Shown here: positions 23,902-33,905 of the stretch, piece by piece
How positions within the stretch are numbered: the stretch's first letter is position 1
Layout of the letters: each line of letters begins with the position of its first letter
Assembly: GCF_008728635.1 (NCBI RefSeq)
Contig: NZ_CP044285.1
Coordinates: 496,001 to 560,000 of the forward strand
Source of the DNA: Hymenobacter baengnokdamensis
GTDB lineage: Bacteria > Bacteroidota > Bacteroidia > Cytophagales > Hymenobacteraceae
Length of the DNA stretch: 64,000 nucleotides
Reading direction: 5' to 3'
Notes under the pieces: model-generated
Told to the model about the DNA's origin: nothing
Database searches by the model: none
The model's input: the letters and a program-made list of their open reading frames with translations, nothing else
Made by a program: the position numbers and the translations under genes

Positions 23902-24342
23902 CTACGGGTGAGCGGCTACCCACACGGTACCATCCTCGTACTCCTCTTTTTTCCAGATAGGCACTACCTCTTTCAAGGTATCGATAATGTACTCGCAGGC
24001 GGCAAACGAATCGGCGCGGTGCGGCGTCGATACCGCCACCACTACGGCCACATCACCGATTTCGAGGGTGCCGTGGCGGTGCGATACAGCTACCTTGCGC
24101 AGCATAGGCCACTTTTCGAGGGCCATTTCGGCCACACGGCGCAGCTGGTGCAGGGCCATGGGTGGGTAGGCTTCGTAGTGCAGGCGCATCACGCGGCGCC
24201 CTTCACTGCGGTTGCGCACCGTACCAATGAAGGCGTTAACCGCCCCCGCCTCGTCCGACTCGGCCGCGTGCAGCACCGCCGCCACGTCGATGGGCTGGTC
24301 GGTGAGGTCGATAAGTAAAGGAGCAGCAGACTGGTCAGCCAT
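23902..24342 (-). CDS. moaE: Molybdopterin synthase catalytic subunit MoaE
   Basis: This large subunit of molybdopterin synthase, with thiocarboxylated MoaD, inserts two sulfurs into cPMP to make molybdopterin. The start at 24342 (MADQSAAPLL) is chosen over an in-frame ATG ten codons upstream because the family begins with the ITDQPID-type strand; this gives 146 aa. Visible motifs are GAVNAFIGTVRN, LHYEAYPPMA, SHRHGTLEIGD and the C-terminal active-site stretch VPIWKKEEYEDG with its paired lysines. It is the last gene of moaA-moaD-moaE. Confidence 0.94.
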   Translation of the reverse strand: MADQSAAPLLIDLTDQPIDVAAVLHAAESDEAGAVNAFIGTVRNRSEGRRVMRLHYEAYPPMALHQLRRVAEMALEKWPMLRKVAVSHRHGTLEIGDVAVVVAVSTPHRADSFAACEYIIDTLKEVVPIWKKEEYEDGTVWVAAHP

Positions 24343-24412
24343 GGCAGAGCGAAGAGCACATGGGCTACTCAATGCAGTAGCGCCACGCTCAAAACATTAA
24401 ATAAATACTATA

Positions 24413-24655
24413 TTATCCGCCGCTTACGGGCGGAATCAGCGCAATTTCATCGCGCTCGTGCAGCTCCACATTGGCAGCAGCGTATTCATTATTAACCGCT
24501 ACGGCCAGGCTGCGCAAGCCAGCCAGCGCGGGGTAGGCGGTGCGTAGCTCGGCCAGCAGCCCGGCGGCCGACTGCCCGGCGGGCGCAGTAAGCGTCAGCG
24601 ACGGCTGCCCCACGATTTCGCGGGCAATTCCAAACAGAGAAACGGTCAGATTCAT
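24413..24655 (-). CDS. moaD: Molybdopterin synthase sulfur carrier subunit MoaD
   Basis: A ubiquitin-like sulfur carrier whose C-terminal glycine is adenylated by a MoeB-type enzyme and converted to a thiocarboxylate that feeds MoaE. The 80-aa product begins MNLTVSLFGIAREI (start 24655, preferred over a leaderless upstream ATG) and ends in IPPVSGG, the required double glycine. It lies between moaA and moaE with short gaps. A MoeB-rhodanese gene that could charge it lies about 5 kb away at 29109-30191. Confidence 0.93.
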   Translation of the reverse strand: MNLTVSLFGIAREIVGQPSLTLTAPAGQSAAGLLAELRTAYPALAGLRSLAVAVNNEYAAANVELHERDEIALIPPVSGG

Positions 24656-24708
24656 CGTATCAGTGCGCAATAAGCAGTTTTCCAGCAATTATTTATTGCT
24701 CACTAAGG

Positions 24709-25728
24709 TTATCCGCCAATGGTTGCCATGCTCTCGAAATTGAGCTGGTGCACGGGGCGCAGGCGCTCGGCCTCGAAGCCGTTGGCGGCGCGGTGATAAA
24801 AAGCCTGGGCCAGGGCTTCGGCCAGGTCGTTATCGGTTGCGCCGTTGCGCAGCAGCGCCCGCAGGTCGAGCACACCCTGGTCATAGAGGCAGGTTTTGAT
24901 GCCGCCTTCGGCGGTGAGACGCAGGCGGTTGCAGCTGCCGCAGAACGTGCGCGAGTAAGCCGCGATGATGCCCACGCTGCCCCGGTGGCCGGCAATAGTA
25001 TACTCGCTGGCCGTGGCTCCCACGGGCATGGGCACCGGCGCCAGCTCCCCCAAATGCGCCTCCAGATGCTGCCGGATGCGGCGGTGGTTCCAGGGCAGCG
25101 ACTCGGGCGTGGCAATATGGCTGCCGCCGTTAAAGGGCATTTCTTCAATGAACCGCACGTCAACCGGCAGCTCGCGGCTTAGCTCGGCCAGCGGCACCAG
25201 GTCCTGGATATTACGCCCATCCATTACTACCGCATTGATTTTCAGCTGAATACCCGCCTCAAGCAGCGCATGCAGCGTGCGCAGCACCTGCGGCAGCTCA
25301 TCGCGGCGGGTTATCTCAAAAAAGCGCTGGCGGTCGAGGGTGTCGAGGCTTAGGTTAACCGCTTTTATGCCCAGGCGGGCCAGGGCCGGCACGTGGGGTG
25401 CCGTAAGCACACCATTGGTAGTCAGGCTGATATCACTGAGACCCGGCAGGGCCGCCAGGCGCTCCATAAACGGCACCAGGTCGCGGCGCACGAAGGGCTC
25501 ACCGCCGGTAAGGCGCACCTTGCGCACGCCCAGCTGCGTCATTACGCCTACCAGGCGCAGCATTTCCTCATAGCTAAGCAGCTCGTGCTTAGGCAAATAA
25601 GTAATACCCTCTTCGGGCATACAGTAAAAACAGCGCAGGTTGCAGCGGTCCGTAACTGCCAGCCGCAGGTATTCAAGCGGCCGGCCGTGGGCGTCGTACA
25701 ACTGAGGGAAGGATAAGGGTGGCATCAA
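24709..25728 (-). CDS. moaA: GTP 3',8-cyclase MoaA (radical SAM)
   Basis: A radical SAM enzyme that rearranges GTP to 3',8-cyclo-GTP for MoaC. In 339 aa it shows the N-terminal cluster motif CNLRCFYC (about 29-36), the GGEPF SAM-binding segment (about 74-78), the second cluster cysteines near the C-terminus (FCGSCNRLRLTAEG and KTCLYDQG, about 262-290) and the C-terminal GG that many MoaA proteins need. Length is normal. It heads a moaA-moaD-moaE operon on the minus strand. No ModE-like site was found in the gap upstream, unlike the second molybdenum locus. Confidence 0.96.
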   Translation of the reverse strand: MMPPLSFPQLYDAHGRPLEYLRLAVTDRCNLRCFYCMPEEGITYLPKHELLSYEEMLRLVGVMTQLGVRKVRLTGGEPFVRRDLVPFMERLAALPGLSDISLTTNGVLTAPHVPALARLGIKAVNLSLDTLDRQRFFEITRRDELPQVLRTLHALLEAGIQLKINAVVMDGRNIQDLVPLAELSRELPVDVRFIEEMPFNGGSHIATPESLPWNHRRIRQHLEAHLGELAPVPMPVGATASEYTIAGHRGSVGIIAAYSRTFCGSCNRLRLTAEGGIKTCLYDQGVLDLRALLRNGATDNDLAEALAQAFYHRAANGFEAERLRPVHQLNFESMATIGG

Positions 25729-25940: not shown

Positions 25941-28037
25941 TTACGGTGCCACTACTAGCTTCCGGACTACTTTGCCAGCAGCAGTTTGCATTGTGCAGTA
26001 GTAAATACCCGGCGGTAGGTCAGCAACCGAGACCGACGTTTCGAAGCTGCCAGCCATCGCCCGGTTATCTTCTACTACTTGCTTGACTTCTCGGCCCATA
26101 GCATTACTCAAAAACACGCGCACATATCCGGGGGTCGTGGTGGTTATAGCAAAGCGCATGTTGCTCGTAGCCGGATTGGGATACATTAAAAAGGCTTTTT
26201 CAGGCAGCCCAACGGCGCTCACTACTACGGGGTCGTTTTTCTTGAGAAGTGTTACGGCCATTACGTATTTAGAGCTGCTGCACGTAGCCTGTACGTCGTT
26301 ATCAGATGCTTGCGCTAATACCCCGCAGGCAGCCGTCGGAATGCTGCTGAAGGCCGTTACGGTGTTGAGGGTAACCGGGTAGCGTGCTACCAGCAGGACG
26401 TTTTGTCGATTAGTTGTTGGCATGCCCGCCACCGGGTTGGGCTTCAGGTTAACCATCAGCTTGACGTACATATTCGTGACGGCGGACGTAAGCGGGGTAG
26501 CTGGGTTGTCTGACTGATAGGTGCTGGAGTAGGTAAATACGGAGTTCTTCACGCACGCGGCATCAACGTACTGATTGCGATAAAGCTGCCGTAGCGTACT
26601 GCTACCAGTAGTTGGGTCAACGTGTACAGTGTTGCCTTCGTAAGTGCTAAAGTCGCCACTACCGACCGTTGTTGTTTCGTCGCCCTCTGCCACCAGGGTC
26701 ACCTGGAAATCCTGCACGGTCATACCAGCCGCCGGATTAATTACGTAAGAGATATTCTGCGTCAGCCTGAATTTCTGCACTATTTGCCGCAAGGTATTAC
26801 CCCGCGTCCCTGATATTACATTTTGGGAGGTAACATCTACTACGGGGCGGTGCAATACGCTGATTACCCCTAGCGCCTCGTTGTAATTGGGAATATCTGA
26901 CGGACGCGTAACAGTAGAACGATTACCTGGATTAAAAAAATAAGGCGTAACGTATAAATTAGTATCCTGAATGGTACCTGTGGTTTTGGTACTCATCTGG
27001 ATTGCCAGCGGCTGTAGGGCTATGGGCTGTGGCGTGCTGTCTTCGCCGCCGCCTATAAAAAAATCAAGCAGCCCCACAGCAGCCCCAATATATGGCAATG
27101 ATGCCAGTCCATTTTGCAGAAAAGTATTTGTCTTTATTACTTTAGCAAAATCATCAATTGCACTTGATGCCCCATCGGCTTTGAGTTTACCTGTAAGCTT
27201 ATCAACGCTGTCAAAGGATGTGCCCGCCGCATTGATAGCCTTATTCGCGACGTTGAAGAAAGAAGGTCCATTCGCGGTACCCGCTGTAGCGTCCTGTGAG
27301 GTAACAATACTGCCGGTAGAAGTTGCCTGCAAAGTGACCGTAGCTTTTTTGATAAGATTTACCTCTATTTGCAAGCGTGAGTCAAACTGACAGATACATG
27401 GGTCATAATCCATCGGAAAGTCCGCGACCAGCCATTTCCGGCCATCGTTAAGGTAGCGTGCAACAACCGAGGGCTGACTAATCATTCCCTTTGGGGTTTC
27501 GTCTAATGGCACCCCGAGGGCCGACATCCGATTCAGCGTAGCAGCTTTATAATTACCGGCATCACTAAAATTCAGTTTCACTTCGGAAAACTGGAAAGGG
27601 GCAAGCTGATTCTGAATAGTAACGAAAACCCTCAATATGCCAAGGTATTTATTATATATGATAACAAAAGGGTTTGACGTAACCAAAGGGTAGCCTGCGT
27701 CAGTATAGCCGAGGTCGCGTTTAATTAATTCCCAGCCGTTAATCCCGATATCATTCTTGCCCTGAAACCTGACCATATTAATATTATTAGGCTGCTGCCA
27801 CGGCAAGTCGAGGTAGGGCGTAGTGTCGACTGAGCTATTCAGCTTATAGAGCGTGCCATTATTGACGCTCGGCTGATAATCGCCCGAGTACCAATTAAAC
27901 GTGTTGGGGTTGCCATTTGGGTTAGTGGCTCGTGGTGGGTCGGTTTCAATGCCCGCTTGTGGGCACACTTGAGCGGCAGCACGATACCAGACGCACGTAG
28001 CTGCTAGCCCCACTGCTAACAGTAGAGAAAAGCGCAT
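25941..28037 (-). CDS. T9SS-secreted protein of unknown function
   Basis: A 698-aa exported protein. A signal peptide (about 1-22, ending AAAQ) precedes a mature part not assigned to a known family. Residues about 265-335 form a helical segment with KLTGKLKADGASSAIDDFAK and a hydrophobic glycine-rich stretch LASLPYIGAAVGLLDFFIGG, which looks like a membrane-interacting hairpin. The C-terminal roughly 80 residues are a type A T9SS sorting domain (LMYPNPAT, NAMGREVKQVV, LPPGIYYCTM). The gene is clearly AT-richer than its neighbours. A lipoprotein gene lies 26 nt upstream, so the two are probably co-transcribed. It separates the two molybdenum loci without an obvious link to them. Confidence 0.8.
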   Translation of the reverse strand: MRFSLLLAVGLAATCVWYRAAAQVCPQAGIETDPPRATNPNGNPNTFNWYSGDYQPSVNNGTLYKLNSSVDTTPYLDLPWQQPNNINMVRFQGKNDIGINGWELIKRDLGYTDAGYPLVTSNPFVIIYNKYLGILRVFVTIQNQLAPFQFSEVKLNFSDAGNYKAATLNRMSALGVPLDETPKGMISQPSVVARYLNDGRKWLVADFPMDYDPCICQFDSRLQIEVNLIKKATVTLQATSTGSIVTSQDATAGTANGPSFFNVANKAINAAGTSFDSVDKLTGKLKADGASSAIDDFAKVIKTNTFLQNGLASLPYIGAAVGLLDFFIGGGEDSTPQPIALQPLAIQMSTKTTGTIQDTNLYVTPYFFNPGNRSTVTRPSDIPNYNEALGVISVLHRPVVDVTSQNVISGTRGNTLRQIVQKFRLTQNISYVINPAAGMTVQDFQVTLVAEGDETTTVGSGDFSTYEGNTVHVDPTTGSSTLRQLYRNQYVDAACVKNSVFTYSSTYQSDNPATPLTSAVTNMYVKLMVNLKPNPVAGMPTTNRQNVLLVARYPVTLNTVTAFSSIPTAACGVLAQASDNDVQATCSSSKYVMAVTLLKKNDPVVVSAVGLPEKAFLMYPNPATSNMRFAITTTTPGYVRVFLSNAMGREVKQVVEDNRAMAGSFETSVSVADLPPGIYYCTMQTAAGKVVRKLVVAP

Positions 28038-28063
28038 ATAAAAGAAAAAGAAGGATGAAACGG

Positions 28064-28831
28064 CTAGCGAATCCGCTTGCCTAAGAAAAATTTATTAACA
28101 CGTGCCGTACTACCCTGCACGAAATAGCTAATCCGAATGCTGTCACGGCTAGTCAGGTAACCAACCCCATCATCATCTGTACAAAAATTTGGGTTCATAT
28201 GGATGCTCCGCCAAGCCAAATAGTTACTAAAATTGGCGCGTGTACAACCTTTAGGAATATTACTGATGTAATCGCTGGGTGGGGCTGTAGGGTCTTTCGG
28301 ATAGAAATAATTCGCTCCCTGGTAAATACGCACCGTGAAGGTGTCGCGCGGCGCATCGGTAGTAGCCCCCTGAAACTTGCCATAAATAGGCGCACGCGGG
28401 TCGCGGATTGGCGCCCGCGAATCCTTGAAGGGCACCAGCGTCAGCACTTTCGTCAGCGTATCCACCCCGTCGTCGTGCGGAAAGCAGGCCGTGTTGGGCG
28501 GCCGGTGCGCAATCAGGCGCACGCGGATAGGCCCGGTCGTGACGTCGTCGAAACTCAGCGAAAATTGCTGCACGTTGCGCGTGTTGAGCGACGAGCCCAC
28601 CTGCCAGTCCCAGGCCGTGTAGGGGGCACCTGGTCCGGCAAACGTAACGACTTGATTGTTATAGGTAGTATCGGGGGTGGGGGTGCCCGGGTATTCTAAA
28701 AACTGGAACGTGAGCGGCTTCAACTGCATCCCCTGGCACGGATTGGGCGGGTTATCGTGGTGTCGGCAACTGCTTACTGCCAGCAAACAGCCACCGCTCA
28801 CTAGCAGCAACTTAACGCAAGAGTTTAACAT
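28064..28831 (-). CDS. Predicted lipoprotein of unknown function
   Basis: A 255-aa protein with a lipoprotein signal sequence: MLNSCVKLLLVSGGCLLAVSSC, with lipobox LAVSSC placing the lipidated Cys at about 22. The mature part has PKD-like beta strands (YTAWDWQVGS, VRLIAHRPP) and several cysteines, but no family was recognised. It is first of a two-gene unit with the T9SS protein at 25941-28037. As a probable outer-membrane lipoprotein it may anchor or accompany that secreted partner; this is inferred only from adjacency. Composition is AT-richer than the flanking molybdenum genes. Confidence 0.72.
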   Translation of the reverse strand: MLNSCVKLLLVSGGCLLAVSSCRHHDNPPNPCQGMQLKPLTFQFLEYPGTPTPDTTYNNQVVTFAGPGAPYTAWDWQVGSSLNTRNVQQFSLSFDDVTTGPIRVRLIAHRPPNTACFPHDDGVDTLTKVLTLVPFKDSRAPIRDPRAPIYGKFQGATTDAPRDTFTVRIYQGANYFYPKDPTAPPSDYISNIPKGCTRANFSNYLAWRSIHMNPNFCTDDDGVGYLTSRDSIRISYFVQGSTARVNKFFLGKRIR

Positions 28832-29108: not shown

Positions 29109-30191
29109 TTAATAGCCCTCCAGGCCGCCACTCAGGGTTTGCACGTTGGCGTAGCCCAACTCCTGCAGTAGCGCCACGGCCTGGGCGCTGCGTATCCCGC
29201 TCTGGCAATACACTACTACCGGGCGCTGGCGCGGCACCTCGGCAGCGCGGGCGGCCAGCTCGGGCAGGGGCAGCAGCACAGCACCGGGCAGGTGGCGGCG
29301 CTGAAACTCCAGCGGCCCGCGCACATCGAGTAGCAGCGGCGGCTCGGCGGCGGCCAGCTGCTGCCGTAGCTCGCTGGCGCTCAGGCTAGCAACAACTTGT
29401 GCCGGAGCGCAGCTGGCGTCAATGTAATCAGCCGGGTTAGCCGTGTCGAGATTAAGCTGGCTTTGCACAGGGTCGCGCTGAAAGCGCAGCGTGCGAGTCT
29501 GAAAGCTGAGCGTATCCAATAGCCAGAGACGGCCGCTGAGCACGTCGCCCAGGCCCAGCACTACTTTCAGCGCCTCGGTAGCCTGTACCGTGCCGATGAG
29601 GCCGGGCAGCACATTGAGCACGCCGGTCGTGTTGCAGTCGGGCGCTTCGGCCGCGCTGGGCGGCTCGGGAAAAAGGCAGCGGTAAGTAGGGCCGCCTGCA
29701 TAGTTAAACACCGATACCTGCCCCTCAAACTTGTAGATGGCCCCCGACACCAGCGGCCGGCCCAGACTCACGCAGGCATCGTTGAGCAGGTAGCGGGTCG
29801 GGAAGTTATCGGAGCCGTCGACTACCACATCGTACTGCGCCACCAGGTCGCGCACGTTGGCCGGACTTACGCGCACGGGATGCAACACATAGGTATTCAG
29901 CTCATTAATCCGACGCAGGGCGCGGACCGCGGCTTCTACTTTGAGCTGGCCTACGTCGTTGGGGCCGTAGAGAATCTGGCGCGGCAGGTTGGTTAGCTCC
30001 ACCTGGTCGGCGTCGGCCAGGCCCAGCGTGCCTACGCCCGCCGCCGCCAGGTATTGCAGCACAGGGCAGCCCAGGCCGCCCGCGCCTACCACCAAGACCC
30101 GCGCCTGGCGCAGGCGCGCCTGCCCGGCTTCGCCGATTTCGGCTAGCTGGAGGTGGCGGCGGTAGCGCTGGCGCTCGGCAGGAGAAAACAT
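29109..30191 (-). CDS. moeB: MoeB/ThiF-type adenylyltransferase fused to rhodanese
   Basis: This enzyme activates the C-terminal glycine of a sulfur carrier (MoaD or ThiS) and the fused rhodanese delivers sulfur. The E1-like domain (about 1-245) shows the ATP-binding GAGGLG (about 36-41), LPRQILYG, the DGSDNFPTRYLLND block, and DCNTTGVLNVLPG, which holds the candidate catalytic Cys. The rhodanese domain (about 265-360) has DVRGPLEFQ and the active loop YCQSGIRSAQ. The CxxC pairs that bind zinc in E. coli MoeB are not seen (only YRCLFP). It lies 75 nt downstream of the TonB-dependent receptor on the same strand and could be the last gene of the molybdenum-regulated run. It may also serve thiamine synthesis. 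Confidence 0.88.
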   Translation of the reverse strand: MFSPAERQRYRRHLQLAEIGEAGQARLRQARVLVVGAGGLGCPVLQYLAAAGVGTLGLADADQVELTNLPRQILYGPNDVGQLKVEAAVRALRRINELNTYVLHPVRVSPANVRDLVAQYDVVVDGSDNFPTRYLLNDACVSLGRPLVSGAIYKFEGQVSVFNYAGGPTYRCLFPEPPSAAEAPDCNTTGVLNVLPGLIGTVQATEALKVVLGLGDVLSGRLWLLDTLSFQTRTLRFQRDPVQSQLNLDTANPADYIDASCAPAQVVASLSASELRQQLAAAEPPLLLDVRGPLEFQRRHLPGAVLLPLPELAARAAEVPRQRPVVVYCQSGIRSAQAVALLQELGYANVQTLSGGLEGY

Positions 30192-30266: not shown

Positions 30267-32918
30267 TTACAGGCCGTACATCACCGTTAGGTAATACAGC
30301 CCGCCCACGCTCGGGCCGCCCAGGTACGATACATAGTATTTATTCAATACATTACTCGCGCCTAGTTTTAGCCGCACCTGAGCGGTCGGAATATAGTAGC
30401 TCACCTGCGCATCAAGGGTACTGTAGGCGGGTACGTCGCCATTGACAAGGAAGGTTTGGGAATAATACCCGACCTGGTGCCGAAAGTTCAGCCCGAAGCC
30501 GGCATTTTGATAAGCGTTCTCGTTGGCGAAGCTCAGGTTATACATCCAGCGCGGGGTATTGAAGCCGTCTTCGAGGCCATCGCCGTTTTCGGTGCGGTCG
30601 AGGCGGGTGTAGGTTGTGTTAGCTCCGGCCAGGTAGCCGGCGCCCAGCTCGTAGCGCAGCCCGGCCGAGCCACCGTAGTTGTACACCTGGCTTTGGGAGT
30701 TGGTCCAGAGCCGGTAGCGCGCCTGCGTGGCGCTGCTGCTGAGCGCCGTAGCAATGGTAGTAAGGTCGGTGCCGGTAGTGAGCGCTGTGCCGCTGGCCGT
30801 AAGCGGCACGTAGGCTTCGACCTGAGCGATGAAATCGCGGTACGAATTATAGTAAAAATCGACATCCACCAGTAGCCTGCCACCCGGCCCTAAGGCCGCC
30901 TTGTAGCCCATTTCGAGCGAGCGGATATACTCGGGCCGCAGGTAGGTGTAGGGGTTTTTCACCAGTAAGCTTTGATTGGCGGCAATGGCCTGAGCCCGCG
31001 TCTGGGCCGGCGTACCGTTGATGCCGGCCGTCACTTTCGCATTAAACGCGTCGATGCTGCTGCGCAGGTAGCTGTTCTCAAATACGCCGTCCGACATCAC
31101 GCGCAAGCCGCCAATGCGCTTTACCTGGCCGCTGTTCACGTTCGAGAACCCCTCAAACAAGCTTGGAAAGCGGTAGCCGCTCTGGTAGCTGAGCCGGAAA
31201 TTCTGGCGCGGCGTGGGCGAGTACACCGCCGTGAAGCGCGGGTTGAATTTTACGTCAAAATCGTCGTTTTTATCGACCCGCAGCGTGGCCGTAAGGCGCA
31301 GCTTTTCCTGCAAAAGCCGGCCGCCAACCTGCACGAAGCCCCCGGTTTTGGAATATAGCAAATCGTCGTGCAGCGGGTCTTTGCCGGGGTTCGGATTAAT
31401 GAAATAGTTGCCATCGGGCACTACGATGTAGGTACGGTGGTCGGCCCCGGCCAGCAGGTCGAGGTTAGCCGGCAGGGCCGTGCCGCCGCGCCGGATGGCC
31501 TCGGCAATGTTTACCTGCGCTTCGGCGTGGGCCAGGCTGGCCCGCACGCGCAGGGCCGCCCCCACGTCCCAGTTATTGATATCCTGAAGCTGGGCCAGCT
31601 TTTGATTAAAGGCGTCGGTGCCGGGCTGAAGGCGGCCGGCATCGGCCGCGGCCCGGGCAGCCGCGTGCGCGGCGGCTACCGACTGCCCACCCGCCACGGC
31701 CGCGTTCCAGGCGTTGGTATAGTCGGCATACCAGGGCGTATCGGCCTTGTAGCTGCGGTCGAGGTTCTCGCCCATCGAGCGCAGGTTGTAGCTCTGGCCA
31801 GTATTTTCTTCGGTGAGGTAGGCGCGGGCCTGCACCACGGGCGTGGTCAGGGTGAGGGCGTGCTGCTGCAGGCGGTAGCCTTGCAGCCGGAAGCGGTTCG
31901 AGCGCTGATACACGTTGTCGAAACCCGCCACGCGGTAGGTATAAGCCAGCTCCACGCCCGGCCGGAAGCGGTAGTGCACCGCGGCGTCGGCCTTGAGCGT
32001 CTTGAGATTGTAGTCGACGAGGTCGCGCTCGTCGTAGCCGGTGCGGGCCACCGAATAGCTTTTGCCGCCCAGCGTAATGCTCTTGCGGTCCGACGACTCG
32101 TTGCCGTAGCGGTTCACCTGGTCCTGGGCCGGGTTATCGGCCCCAAACAGGCCCGTCGTGGCATTGCCGTTGGGGTTGATGTCGGTCTGGTCGTTGGCTA
32201 CCCAGTCGTAGCCGCGCAGGTAAGTGCCATTTACTTTAAAAGCCAGCTTGTCGGGTATCAGCACTTTGGCGTAGCGCAAGCTGGTTTCCGAATACAGCTT
32301 TTCGGTGGTTGCGCCCTGCCCAAACGTTTTGACATTCGGGTCGCTGAGGTGGTTGAGACCCGTTTGCTGGCGCAGGCTCAGGCCCTCCGAGTTAAATGGA
32401 CTTTTGGTTTGAAAATTTGCCAGGCCGTTAATCGCATTCAGCCCATACAGGGCGGCGGCCGTGCCGGGCACCACCTCCACGCTCTGAATATCGAGGTCGC
32501 TCGGCCCCAGCACGTTGCCAATTGGCCCGCCGATGTGCGGCGCCTGGTTATCCACCCCATCCACGAGCTGGGCAAAGCGCACGTTGGTGGTGTTGGTGAA
32601 GCCCCGCGCATTTATCACCTTGAAGCCCAGGCTGGGGGTAATGACCTGCACGCCCTTCAGATTTTCGATGGCATCGAAAAACGAGGGGGCCGCCGACAGC
32701 CGAATGGCGCGGGCGTTGAGCTTTTCTACCGTCACGGGCGACTGCAAAAAGCTTTCCTCCACCCGGGAAGCCGAGACCACGACCTCGTTGAGGCTGGTGC
32801 GCAGCGTATCGGCAGGGGCCGGGTGGCGCGGCGGCTTCGGCGCCTGGGCGGCCGCCGGATGGGCCAGGGCCGCAGCACAGGCCCCCAAGCCGCACAGGAT
32901 GCGTAGCTTTTGTTTCAT
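30267..32918 (-). CDS. TonB-dependent outer-membrane receptor, candidate molybdate/Mo-complex importer
   Basis: An 883-aa TonB-dependent receptor. It has a signal peptide (about 1-24), a TonB-box-like EVVVSA (about 45-50), a plug domain (about 50-165, with VINARGFTN, QLVDGVDNQAP and VEVVPGTAAALYGLNAINGLAN) and a 22-strand-type beta-barrel to the C-terminus. No N-terminal carboxypeptidase-D-like or FecR-signalling domain is present and there is no SusD partner, so a glycan role is unlikely. It is the second gene after a ModE-like operator and promoter, 26 nt behind a SUOX-fold protein, and is followed by moeB. From this context I infer transport of molybdate, tungstate or a metallophore complex; the protein itself gives no substrate signature. 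Confidence 0.85.
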   Translation of the reverse strand: MKQKLRILCGLGACAAALAHPAAAQAPKPPRHPAPADTLRTSLNEVVVSASRVEESFLQSPVTVEKLNARAIRLSAAPSFFDAIENLKGVQVITPSLGFKVINARGFTNTTNVRFAQLVDGVDNQAPHIGGPIGNVLGPSDLDIQSVEVVPGTAAALYGLNAINGLANFQTKSPFNSEGLSLRQQTGLNHLSDPNVKTFGQGATTEKLYSETSLRYAKVLIPDKLAFKVNGTYLRGYDWVANDQTDINPNGNATTGLFGADNPAQDQVNRYGNESSDRKSITLGGKSYSVARTGYDERDLVDYNLKTLKADAAVHYRFRPGVELAYTYRVAGFDNVYQRSNRFRLQGYRLQQHALTLTTPVVQARAYLTEENTGQSYNLRSMGENLDRSYKADTPWYADYTNAWNAAVAGGQSVAAAHAAARAAADAGRLQPGTDAFNQKLAQLQDINNWDVGAALRVRASLAHAEAQVNIAEAIRRGGTALPANLDLLAGADHRTYIVVPDGNYFINPNPGKDPLHDDLLYSKTGGFVQVGGRLLQEKLRLTATLRVDKNDDFDVKFNPRFTAVYSPTPRQNFRLSYQSGYRFPSLFEGFSNVNSGQVKRIGGLRVMSDGVFENSYLRSSIDAFNAKVTAGINGTPAQTRAQAIAANQSLLVKNPYTYLRPEYIRSLEMGYKAALGPGGRLLVDVDFYYNSYRDFIAQVEAYVPLTASGTALTTGTDLTTIATALSSSATQARYRLWTNSQSQVYNYGGSAGLRYELGAGYLAGANTTYTRLDRTENGDGLEDGFNTPRWMYNLSFANENAYQNAGFGLNFRHQVGYYSQTFLVNGDVPAYSTLDAQVSYYIPTAQVRLKLGASNVLNKYYVSYLGGPSVGGLYYLTVMYGL

Positions 32919-32944: not shown

Positions 32945-33466
32945 TTACTGGACACTCACTACGCGCAGGCCAGTGAGCTGGCGCACCCAGCGGGCGGGCT
33001 TTTTTTCCAGCGGCACAATGAGCTGGTAGGGGCCATCGGGCGCGGGCAGGGGCTGGCCATCGCGCTGGTCGGCCAGCAGAATAGTCTGGGGCGAGAAATC
33101 GGCGTCGATTTCCGGCAGGGCAAATACCGCCCGGTAGCCGTCGGCAGCAGTAGCCAGCACGGCCTCGGCCAGCACCGCCCCGTGAATGGCCTTGCCGGCC
33201 GGCGCGCCCGCCAGGTGCAGCACGTCGGCCAGCGCCACCCCGCGGTACAGGTGCTTTTTACCATCCTTATCGGTAGTAGCCTGCTCGTGGCGGGGCAGCG
33301 CGGCCAGGTCGGCGGCGCTGAAGGTGCGGGGCGTAGCCACCAGCCCCTCGACCCGAAGCGTAGCGGGCCCGGCCTGCGCGCAAGCGGCCGGGTGCAAGCC
33401 AGCAACGCTCATTGCTAATACTGCTGTGGGCAGCCAGCAGCGGCGGCCAATAGAAAAAAGTAGCAT
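32945..33466 (-). CDS. Exported small molybdopterin-binding-fold (SUOX-like) protein
   Basis: A 173-aa protein with a signal peptide (MLLFSIGRRCWLPTAVLAMS to AACAQAG) and a single oxidoreductase molybdopterin-binding-like domain: LRVEGLVATPRTFSAADLAALP, YRGVALADVLHLAGAP, GYRAVFALPEID and a closing VRQLTGLRVV strand. The start at 33466 is chosen for the signal peptide and lies 25 nt after the expected transcription start; an open frame upstream crosses the operator. The mature part contains no cysteine, so it lacks the Mo-ligating Cys of sulfite oxidase and MsrP and is unlikely to be a normal redox enzyme. It is first in the run with the TonB-dependent receptor. A periplasmic molybdate or cofactor-binding role is inference. 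Confidence 0.8.
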   Translation of the reverse strand: MLLFSIGRRCWLPTAVLAMSVAGLHPAACAQAGPATLRVEGLVATPRTFSAADLAALPRHEQATTDKDGKKHLYRGVALADVLHLAGAPAGKAIHGAVLAEAVLATAADGYRAVFALPEIDADFSPQTILLADQRDGQPLPAPDGPYQLIVPLEKKPARWVRQLTGLRVVSVQ

Positions 33467-33484: not shown

Positions 33485-33508
33485 CGTTATATTTTGACAA
33501 ATATAACG
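33485..33508. promoter_or_regulatory. Predicted ModE operator
   Basis: CGTTATAT, 8 nt, ATATAACG: a perfect 8-bp dyad that extends to 10 bp (CGTTATATTT-TGAC-AAATATAACG). This is the form described for ModE boxes of enterobacterial mod operons (CGTTATAT, short spacer, ATAACG). It lies between the ModE-type gene and the SUOX-fold/receptor run and covers the -7 box of that run, so bound regulator should repress. No other such dyad was noticed in non-coding parts of the window. Confidence 0.8.
33498..33505 (-). promoter_or_regulatory. -7 box inside the ModE operator
   Basis: Read on the minus strand, TATATTTG matches TAnnTTTG exactly. It ends 31 nt before the start codon at 33466, predicting a leader of about 25 nt. 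The box is embedded in the operator dyad. The -33 region is weak (TTTC at 33521-33524). Confidence 0.6.
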
Positions 33509-33545: not shown

Positions 33546-33905
33546 TTAATGGTAGAGGCGAGCGGTTTCGTCGGCCAGAAACTGCGCAAACCGCGCCTGC
33601 ATAGCCCGAAACCCGGCGATGGCCTGCTCGCCGGCCGGCGTGAGGCTGGCGCCGCCGCCGTGGGCCCCGCCCGCGTGCGCACCCACCAGCGGCTGTCGGG
33701 CCTGGGCATTCATCGAACTCACTAAGTCCCAGGCTTTTTTGTACGACATGCCCATTTCCTTGGCCGCCTTCGAGATGGAGCCGGTGGCTTGAATGCGCTC
33801 CAGCAGCTCAAGCCGGCCAATGCCGAGGAAACGGTCGGCCGGGCCCTCTATCCAGAGGCGGCCGCTGGCGCGGAAGGCTTGATTTTCAGCAAAAAGCTCG
33901 TGCAT
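33546..33905 (-). CDS. modE: ModE-type winged-helix regulator, DNA-binding domain only
   Basis: A 119-aa protein matching the N-terminal DNA-binding half of ModE. It has FLGIGRLELLERIQATGSIS (about 27-46), the recognition-helix region KAAKEMGMSYKKAWDLVSSMN (about 47-67) and the glycine-rich wing GGAHGGGASLTPAGEQ (about 79-94), then a helix for dimerisation. E. coli ModE is about 262 aa because two molbindin domains that bind molybdate follow; here the protein ends after the DNA-binding part, so molybdate sensing must be indirect or done by a partner. It is directly upstream of the predicted operator, on the same strand as the run it should control. Confidence 0.85.
   Translation of the reverse strand: MHELFAENQAFRASGRLWIEGPADRFLGIGRLELLERIQATGSISKAAKEMGMSYKKAWDLVSSMNAQARQPLVGAHAGGAHGGGASLTPAGEQAIAGFRAMQARFAQFLADETARLYH

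What the first reader, a model, noticed from the sequence alone, without database searches (positions are those of the whole stretch)
33485..33508. ModE-type operator and promoter in front of a TonB-dependent receptor operon: a candidate outer-membrane molybdenum importer
The sequence shows a perfect dyad CGTTATAT-N8-ATATAACG, 24 bp long, in the gap between a ModE-type DNA-binding protein gene and a minus-strand run: SUOX-fold protein, TonB-dependent receptor, MoeB-rhodanese. A minus-strand -7 box (TATATTTG) lies inside the dyad. Established: ModE binds CGTTATAT...ATAACG sites and represses mod genes when molybdate is plentiful. Inference: the receptor is made when Mo is scarce and imports molybdate, tungstate or a Mo-metallophore complex, a role not normally assigned to TonB-dependent receptors. 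Nearby moa genes strengthen the link.
Basis: partly seen in the sequence, partly recalled or inferred. Interest (0 to 1): 0.8.

Follow-up and report, generated by a model that had tools for sequence, protein, structure and literature searches.

The report
Molybdenum-controlled outer-membrane receptor in Hymenobacter
A perfect ModE-type DNA switch sits in front of an outer-membrane TonB-dependent receptor gene, and the same switch precedes this receptor in most relatives examined across the Bacteroidota, so the receptor very probably belongs to the cell's molybdenum-supply system, a role not usually given to such receptors.

Summary
The 24-bp dyad is real and the only perfect copy in the 4.43-Mb genome. 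It fits the published E. coli ModE consensus. It lies within 900 bp upstream of the orthologous receptor in 59 of 69 loci; shuffled half-sites average 0.35. The genome's second-best copy lies in front of modA. Among 67 Hymenobacter genomes, 53 have receptor and ModE, 4 receptor only, 1 ModE only, 9 neither; all 4 receptor-only genomes lack the dyad. Membership of the ModE regulon is therefore well supported. That the receptor imports molybdate or a Mo chelate, and is repressed when Mo is plentiful, is inference. Corrections: this ModE is the DNA-binding domain alone and no TOBE domain was found in the genome, so the sensor is unknown; 57 of 67 Hymenobacter genomes have the receptor but only 19 a modA hit. 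Ten searches of an open-licence library showed no ModE-controlled TonB receptor.

The parts
33485..33508 (.). ModE-type operator, perfect 24-bp dyad CGTTATAT-N8-ATATAACG
   Evidence: conserved before orthologous receptors in 59 of 69 loci; arms 90.5% identical and centre 44%, against 27-35% for flanks, among the 40 of 41 Hymenobacter/Solirubrum loci that have it
33498..33505 (-). putative -7 box TATATTTG inside the dyad
   Evidence: TAnnTTTG lies in the dyad on the receptor's strand in 21 of 59 loci, 3 of 59 on the other strand, mean 1.2 (max 6) with shuffled centres
33546..33905 (-). short ModE-type regulator: DNA-binding domain only, 119 aa
   Evidence: PF00126; TIGR00637 84.0 bits, below cut-off 98.5; PDB 2ijl E=4.6e-19, ModE 1b9m E=1.8e-12
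32945..33466 (-). small probably secreted SUOX-fold protein (PF00174); cysteines only at residues 10 and 29, in what looks like its leader; first gene after the operator
   Evidence: PF00174 39.9 bits; Cys positions; homologues next to modABC or CCP_MauG under ModE-type dyads in relatives
30267..32918 (-). TonB-dependent receptor, 883 aa, candidate Mo importer
   Evidence: PF07715 plug + PF00593 barrel; clade at 1290 bits or more, next full-length paralogues at about 941 or less; AF2 model pLDDT 83.5
29109..30191 (-). MoeB/ThiF-rhodanese (molybdopterin synthase sulfurylation)
   Evidence: PF00899 + PF00581; NCBIfam MoeB models, PRK05690 over its cut-off
24709..25728 (-). moaA
   Evidence: TIGR02666 347.4 bits, over cut-off 284.05
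24413..24688 (-). moaD
   Evidence: TIGR01682 62.2 bits, just under cut-off 66.15
23902..24372 (-). moaE
   Evidence: PRK10678 MoaE 99.8 bits, below cut-off 175

Best explanation
The dyad is the operator of the neighbouring short ModE. It covers the promoter of an operon for a SUOX-fold, probably periplasmic protein and a TonB-dependent receptor, with MoeB close downstream. Together with modABC elsewhere in the genome this operon forms a molybdenum regulon (supported by comparative evidence). Most likely ModE blocks the promoter when the cell has enough Mo and frees it when Mo is scarce (inferred from the -7 box inside the dyad). The receptor then pulls molybdate, tungstate or a Mo chelate through the outer membrane with TonB energy (inferred). 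The SUOX-fold protein may handle the cargo in the periplasm before ModABC or another permease (speculative). How a ModE without a Mo-binding domain senses Mo is not known.
For: Dyad upstream of the orthologous receptor in 59 of 69 loci: 40 of 41 in Hymenobacter/Solirubrum, 19 of 28 in other genera; other spacings 0-4 of 69. Taking dyads first, 27 of the 30 dyad loci held from a family-wide scan carry this receptor within 1.5 kb. The own genome's second-best dyad is in front of modA; across Hymenobacter 15 of 19 modA hits have it with up to 3 mismatches, shuffled mean 0.03, max 3. ModE and receptor co-occur in one genus, p=1.6e-7; in 51 of 53 genomes with both, ModE lies within 5 kb upstream on the same strand. 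Receptor without ModE hit means no dyad, 4 of 4, while G016, G446 and G337, with ModE elsewhere, keep it. Phylum draw: 9 of 9 receptor genomes have ModE (79 of 296 overall) and moaA (172 of 296 overall). Among 21 paralogue loci one has a dyad with 3 mismatches, inside the gene. One Flavobacteriaceae locus puts the receptor in a Moco gene run: XdhC, MobA-like, MoaA, ModE, dyad, receptor, MoeA, TauE, MoeB-like ThiF, MoaE. In 4 of 4 cases a ModE with helix AYRQAW goes with a TCAGTAT-N12-ATACTGA dyad, and one genome (G349) holds both ModE types, each beside its own dyad.
Against: No binding, expression or transport data. ModE lacks the molybdate-binding domains and PF03459 finds none in the genome. 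Nine of 28 loci outside Hymenobacter/Solirubrum lack the dyad. In the phylum draw 70 of 79 ModE genomes have no member of the receptor clade, so ModE does without it in many lineages. The fold is generic: nearest solved structures are siderophore and cobalamin receptors. The dyad also stands before molybdenum hydroxylase-type operons, so a dyad alone does not prove Mo import. In 48 of 67 Hymenobacter genomes no modA was found, so the inner-membrane step is unexplained there. The tests across genomes count related genomes as independent.
Confidence: 0.65

Rival explanations
1. The receptor is in the ModE regulon but imports the substrate of a molybdoenzyme (for example a purine or an aromatic), so that uptake is matched to cofactor supply.
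For: The same dyad stands before molybdenum hydroxylase-type operons in some relatives, in L111, L113 and L114 within a few kb of the receptor gene.
Against: At those operons the dyad lies roughly 160-270 bp before the first gene (start codons not verified; coordinates), whereas at the receptor a -7 box lies inside it in 21 of 59 loci, which suggests different modes of control. The receptor's recurrent partners are ModE (50 of 69 loci) and, in 9 Hymenobacter-type loci and L052, Moco genes, not one enzyme type.
Confidence: 0.15
2. It is an iron-siderophore or heme receptor brought under Mo control, for instance because catechol siderophores also bind molybdate.
For: Closest folds are Cir, PirA and PfeA, including a PfeA-protochelin complex. 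Weak sub-cut-off matches to heme and siderophore receptor models. In close relatives an EntS-like MFS and a PepSY_TM gene lie nearby.
Against: The fold match is generic (11-15% identity). The MFS and PepSY genes are seen in the closest relatives and hardly elsewhere. Fur sites were not tested. If the cargo is a Mo-siderophore this merges with the main reading.
Confidence: 0.15
3. The dyad serves ModE autoregulation or another regulator and its place before the receptor is incidental.
For: ModE is the upstream neighbour in 50 of 69 loci.
Against: In the window the dyad lies downstream of modE and upstream of the operon. Of 59 dyad loci 11 have no ModE upstream on the same strand, 10 of them none in the locus. 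Three genomes with ModE elsewhere keep it. The same dyad is before modA.
Confidence: 0.03

Closest known systems
E. coli ModE-modABC regulon
   Same: 24-bp dyad in the same register as the published consensus ATCGNTATATA-N6-TATATANCGAT (PMC545781, passages); dyad before modA in the same genome
   Different: ModE is the DNA-binding domain alone and no TOBE domain was found in the genome; the regulon includes an outer-membrane receptor
Single-domain ModE proteins of Desulfovibrio
   Same: ModE DNA-binding domain alone, Mo sensing called unclear (PMC545781, passages)
   Different: their predicted site is CGGTCACG-N14-CGTGACCG (same source), unlike this E. coli-type dyad
P. aeruginosa T6SS-secreted ModA with outer-membrane IcmP (molybdate uptake)
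   Same: an outer-membrane route for molybdate (review PMC8602904, passages)
   Different: IcmP is described there as a metalloproteinase outer-membrane protein, not a TonB-dependent receptor, and the route uses T6SS
Metal-specific TonB-dependent transporters (OprC for Cu, MnoT for Mn)
   Same: TonB-dependent transporters induced when their metal is scarce (PMC8602904, passages)
   Different: cation cargo; here the cargo would be an oxyanion or its chelate
Catecholate siderophore receptors Cir, PfeA, PirA
   Same: overall plug-barrel fold
   Different: about 12-14% identity; by sequence only Cir matches, over the plug

Membership tests
ModE operator (E. coli type) | CGNTATATA-N6-TATATANCG dyad | tested here: met
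   Window dyad CGTTATATT-TTGACA-AATATAACG: one difference per arm from the consensus in PMC545781
ModE operator (E. coli type) | stands before molybdate uptake genes of the same genome | tested here: met
   2-mismatch copy in front of modA; 15 of 19 Hymenobacter modA hits with up to 3 mismatches, the other 4 with 4
ModE operator (E. coli type) | bound by ModE in a Mo-dependent way | not testable with these tools
   needs EMSA or footprint
ModE regulator (full length) | ModE N-terminal winged-helix domain | tested here: met
   TIGR00637 E=5.9e-24, though below its cut-off; PDB ModE hits
ModE regulator (full length) | C-terminal molybdate-binding Mop/TOBE domains | tested here: not met
   119 aa, no such domain; PF03459 0 hits in the genome at E<=0.001, 12 of 14 control genomes ring
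TonB-dependent receptor | plug plus beta-barrel domains | tested here: met
   PF07715 and PF00593 over cut-off; AF2 model and Foldseek
TonB-dependent receptor | TonB box and TonB-driven transport | not tested
   -
Sulfite-oxidase-fold molybdoenzyme | Mo-ligating cysteine | tested here: not met
   window protein has Cys only at residues 10 and 29, in its apparent leader; five of 13 relatives have Cys further on, not shown to be the ligand

The most novel reading that the evidence does not exclude
A family of TonB-dependent receptors dedicated to molybdenum, spread over Bacteroidota, is a core uptake part of the ModE regulon, in Hymenobacter more widespread than modA (57 against 19 of 67 genomes). 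It works with a SUOX-fold periplasmic carrier and is controlled by a ModE that senses Mo without any Mop domain, perhaps through the state of Moco or an unknown partner.
Probability: 0.45. Interest if true: 0.82.

Novelty: new variant of a known kind. Interest (0 to 1): 0.72.

Why it matters
Molybdate is usually taken to cross the outer membrane by diffusion through porins (recalled). A conserved, ModE-controlled TonB receptor would make Mo one more nutrient that is actively pulled in and would give a function to a receptor clade that several source annotations call an Fe-transport receptor. It raises two testable questions: how a ModE without a Mo-binding domain senses Mo, and what carries Mo across the inner membrane in the 38 of 57 receptor-bearing Hymenobacter genomes without a modA hit (tables compared).

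Tried and rejected
Chance match: rejected, although at up to 3 mismatches the reversed control pattern has more sites in the genome (13) than the dyad (4). Shared ancestry of unconstrained DNA: rejected, arms 90.5% identical against 27-35% for flanks among 40 loci (these loci had been picked for a dyad with up to 3 mismatches, 40 of 41). Presence of moaA as a contrast within Hymenobacter: uninformative, 67 of 67 have it. Second receptor gene next to modA as another regulon member: no dyad of its own within 4 mismatches in L106. An operator before moaA in the window: none found, although 6 of 9 relatives with moeB and moaA behind the receptor show dyads with 1-3 mismatches between the two genes (L008, L013, L017, L029, L032, L040). 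Structure hits do not identify the cargo. A -33 box was not tested. Paper searches (listings, plus the passages seen) showed no TonB receptor under ModE; the library holds only open-licence papers, and the Studholme and Pau ModE-site paper was not held.

Full report
OBSERVATION. The dyad CGTTATAT-N8-ATATAACG is at 33485-33508. It is the only perfect match in the window (2 matches with up to 3 mismatches, 0.14 expected) and in the 4,428,884-base genome (4 matches with up to 3 mismatches; the reversed control pattern has 13, so loose matches as such mean little). The closest named relative found is Hymenobacter sp. BRD67, receptor 98% identical. The dyad lies 37 bp beyond the stop of a ModE-type gene and 18 bp before the start of a SUOX-fold gene, followed by the TonB-dependent receptor and MoeB-rhodanese, all on the minus strand. 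The minus strand carries TATATTTG inside the dyad.

WHAT THE REGULATOR IS. The 119-aa protein matches the ModE DNA-binding domain (TIGR00637 84.0 bits, cut-off 98.5) and solved ModE structures (2ijl, 1b9m). It has no Mop/TOBE part. PF03459 finds no TOBE domain in the genome at E<=0.001 while 12 of 14 control genomes ring; the end of the own ModC looks TOBE-like by eye only. So a molybdate-binding domain is not part of this ModE and none was found elsewhere in the genome. Single-domain ModE proteins were noted before in Desulfovibrio, with Mo sensing called unclear (PMC545781, passages).

CONSERVATION OF THE OPERATOR. One genome-contig scan gave 69 loci with relatives of the receptor (49-98% identity). 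Within 900 bp upstream, 59 of 69 have the dyad with up to 3 mismatches (16 perfect). Shuffled half-sites gave a mean of 0.35 of 69 (maximum 8, for a half-site close to the real one), and other spacings from 0 to 15 gave 0-4 of 69. By group it is 40 of 41 in Hymenobacter and Solirubrum and 19 of 28 elsewhere, among them Dyadobacter, Runella, Larkinella, Spirosoma, Ferruginibacter, Niastella and a Flavobacteriaceae. The ten misses are L026, L044, L046, L053, L055, L056, L058, L063, L069 and L073 (best 4-7 mismatches; L073 is truncated). Among the 40 Hymenobacter/Solirubrum loci the arms are 90.5% identical, the centre 44% and flanks 27-35%. The -7 form TAnnTTTG lies within the dyad on the receptor's strand in 21 of 59, against 1.2 with shuffled centres and 3 of 59 on the other strand; the consensus is recalled.

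UNBIASED LOOK. Scanning 150 genomes of the family for the dyad (up to 1 mismatch) gave hits in 56. By my count of that table these are 52 of the 66 listed as own genome or same genus plus 4 of one other genus, while the reversed control pattern hit 5 of 150 and none of the 66. The scan gave 30 dyad loci to hold; 27 of the 30 carry this receptor within 1.5 kb and 25 carry ModE. Of the three others, L080 lies before a CCP_MauG gene, a different TonB-receptor-like gene (two overlapping frames, named by eye and by weak profile hits) and a SUOX-fold gene; L094 lies before a molybdenum hydroxylase-type operon; L078 was not annotated (of the hydroxylase-type loci Pfam was run only on three genes of L111, the others are alike by sequence). 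A further perfect dyad in G009 stands before SUOX-fold, modA-, modB- and modC-type genes (L109).

THE DYAD AND MOLYBDATE UPTAKE. In the own genome the second-best dyad (2 mismatches, 319461-319484) lies directly upstream of modA (domain 318676-319329, minus; about 30 bp before its first ATG). Of 19 modA hits in 67 Hymenobacter genomes (E<=1e-20), 15 have the dyad with up to 3 mismatches and the other four have 4 mismatches in much the same position; the shuffled mean is 0.03, maximum 3.

THE DYAD FOLLOWS ModE. In the 67-genome genus draw 57 genomes have a member of the receptor clade (above 1300 bits; paralogues at most about 941). Among these G041 has one in-frame stop and the G453 match is incomplete; in a further genome, G458, the gene is split into two frames and is not counted. 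ModE is present in 54 (E<=1e-8). Both are in 53, receptor only in 4, ModE only in 1 (G458), neither in 9 (Fisher p=1.6e-7, genomes not independent). ModE lies within 5 kb upstream and codirectional in 51 of 53. The 4 receptor genomes without ModE hit have no dyad (best 6-7 mismatches), whereas G016 and G446 (Hymenobacter) and G337 (another genus), with ModE at another place, keep it (0, 2 and 1 mismatches). Three of the four may be one lineage. Decay of ModE sites after loss of ModE was described for Geobacter metallireducens (PMC2700814, passages). In the phylum draw of 296 genomes 9 have the clade (above 1290 bits); all 9 have ModE (79 of 296 overall, p=4.8e-6) and moaA (172 of 296 overall, p=0.007). 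Conversely 70 of the 79 ModE genomes have no clade member, so ModE is not tied to the receptor everywhere. Of the 9, six have a dyad with up to 3 mismatches; of 21 paralogue loci one has, inside the gene; of 30 loci held around the best-scoring ModE genes of that draw (frames of 270 aa or more), 10 have one.

A CHANGED PAIR. The three remaining genomes (G170, G349, G369; unnamed, all family label f7, genus label g17) have ModE next to the receptor but another dyad of the same geometry: TCAGTAT-N12-ATACTGA (0-1 mismatches) instead of CGTTAT-N12-ATAACG. Their ModE has AYRQAW where the others have SY[KRQ]xAW. A fourth genome of that label (G317) has the same helix and a perfect TCAGTAT dyad, in a cluster modA, TOBE protein, modB, modC, ModE, dyad, CCP_MauG, SUOX-fold (modB and modC by sequence only). 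G349 carries both ModE types, the SY type beside a perfect CGTTAT dyad before a Moco gene run. In the 69 named loci all 51 ModE helices that the motif found are of the SY type, and 49 of 51 go with CGTTAT. I take this as the strongest sign that ModE itself reads the dyad; that this motif is the DNA-recognition helix is recalled.

GENE CONTEXT. In JASCOH010000003.1 (Flavobacteriaceae PS02334) the order is XdhC, MobA-like, MoaA, ModE, dyad, receptor, MoeA, TauE, ThiF/MoeB-like, MoaE (Pfam gave no hit for its ModE, which rests on similarity). In 9 of 69 loci, all close relatives, moeB and moaA, moaD, moaE follow the receptor, 6 of the 9 with a second weaker dyad (1-3 mismatches) between moeB and moaA; in the window no such dyad is seen. 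The SUOX-fold gene lies between dyad and receptor in 13 of 69 loci; the window protein has no cysteine beyond its apparent leader, while five of the 13 do (L060 has a disturbed frame).

THE RECEPTOR. It is a distinct, well conserved clade: 34 orthologues of the 69 were aligned, mean column identity 62%. The model (pLDDT 83.5) resembles Cir, PirA, PfeA and BtuB in general fold. By sequence only Cir (2hdf, 9nn6) matches, over the plug. These results do not name the cargo.

HOW IT MOST LIKELY WORKS. Supported by comparison: receptor operon, modA and ModE form one regulon through this dyad. Inferred: repression when Mo is sufficient, from the overlap with the -7 box. Inferred: the cargo is molybdate, tungstate or a Mo chelate, from the company it keeps (modA, Moco genes). 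Unknown: sensor, cargo form, inner-membrane partner. Only 19 of 67 Hymenobacter genomes have a modA hit, and by comparing the tables all 19 have the receptor (p=0.026).

NOVELTY. ModE regulons, short ModE proteins and metal-specific TonB receptors are known kinds. A TonB receptor as a core member of a ModE regulon was not found in ten paper searches of an open-licence library (listings and some passages). Outer-membrane molybdate uptake is known in another form, T6SS-ModA-IcmP of P. aeruginosa (PMC8602904, passages).

Noticed in passing
L207-L209, L214 against L210, L211, L213: ModE recognition-helix change (SY..AW to AYRQAW) goes with a dyad change (CGTTAT to TCAGTAT); one genome (G349) has both pairs.
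   Followed up: partly
L106:7566-10019 (own genome, G000:C1): A second TonB-dependent receptor gene, which gave no hit to the receptor-clade profile, lies directly upstream of modA; similar receptor C-termini stand upstream in 14 of 19 Hymenobacter modA loci by reading; no dyad of its own.
   Followed up: partly
window 25941-28831: Two genes (698 and 255 aa) lie between moeB and moaA; in Hymenobacter sp. BRD67 (L005) the same gap is about 180 bp, so this looks like an insertion.
   Followed up: no
L111-L117: ModE-type dyads roughly 160-270 bp before molybdenum hydroxylase-type operons, some with a cNMP-binding regulator gene beside them (Pfam on L111 only); possibly activation.
   Followed up: partly
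L052, L211, L212: A TauE/SafE-family membrane protein gene sits in Moco gene runs with a ModE-type dyad; candidate inner-membrane partner.
   Followed up: no
L108, L109, L214, window 32945-33466: Small SUOX-fold proteins recur under ModE-type dyads next to modABC, CCP_MauG or TonB receptors.
   Followed up: partly
G458:C1:3353288-3355482: The receptor gene is split into two frames in one Hymenobacter genome that still has ModE and the dyad.
   Followed up: no
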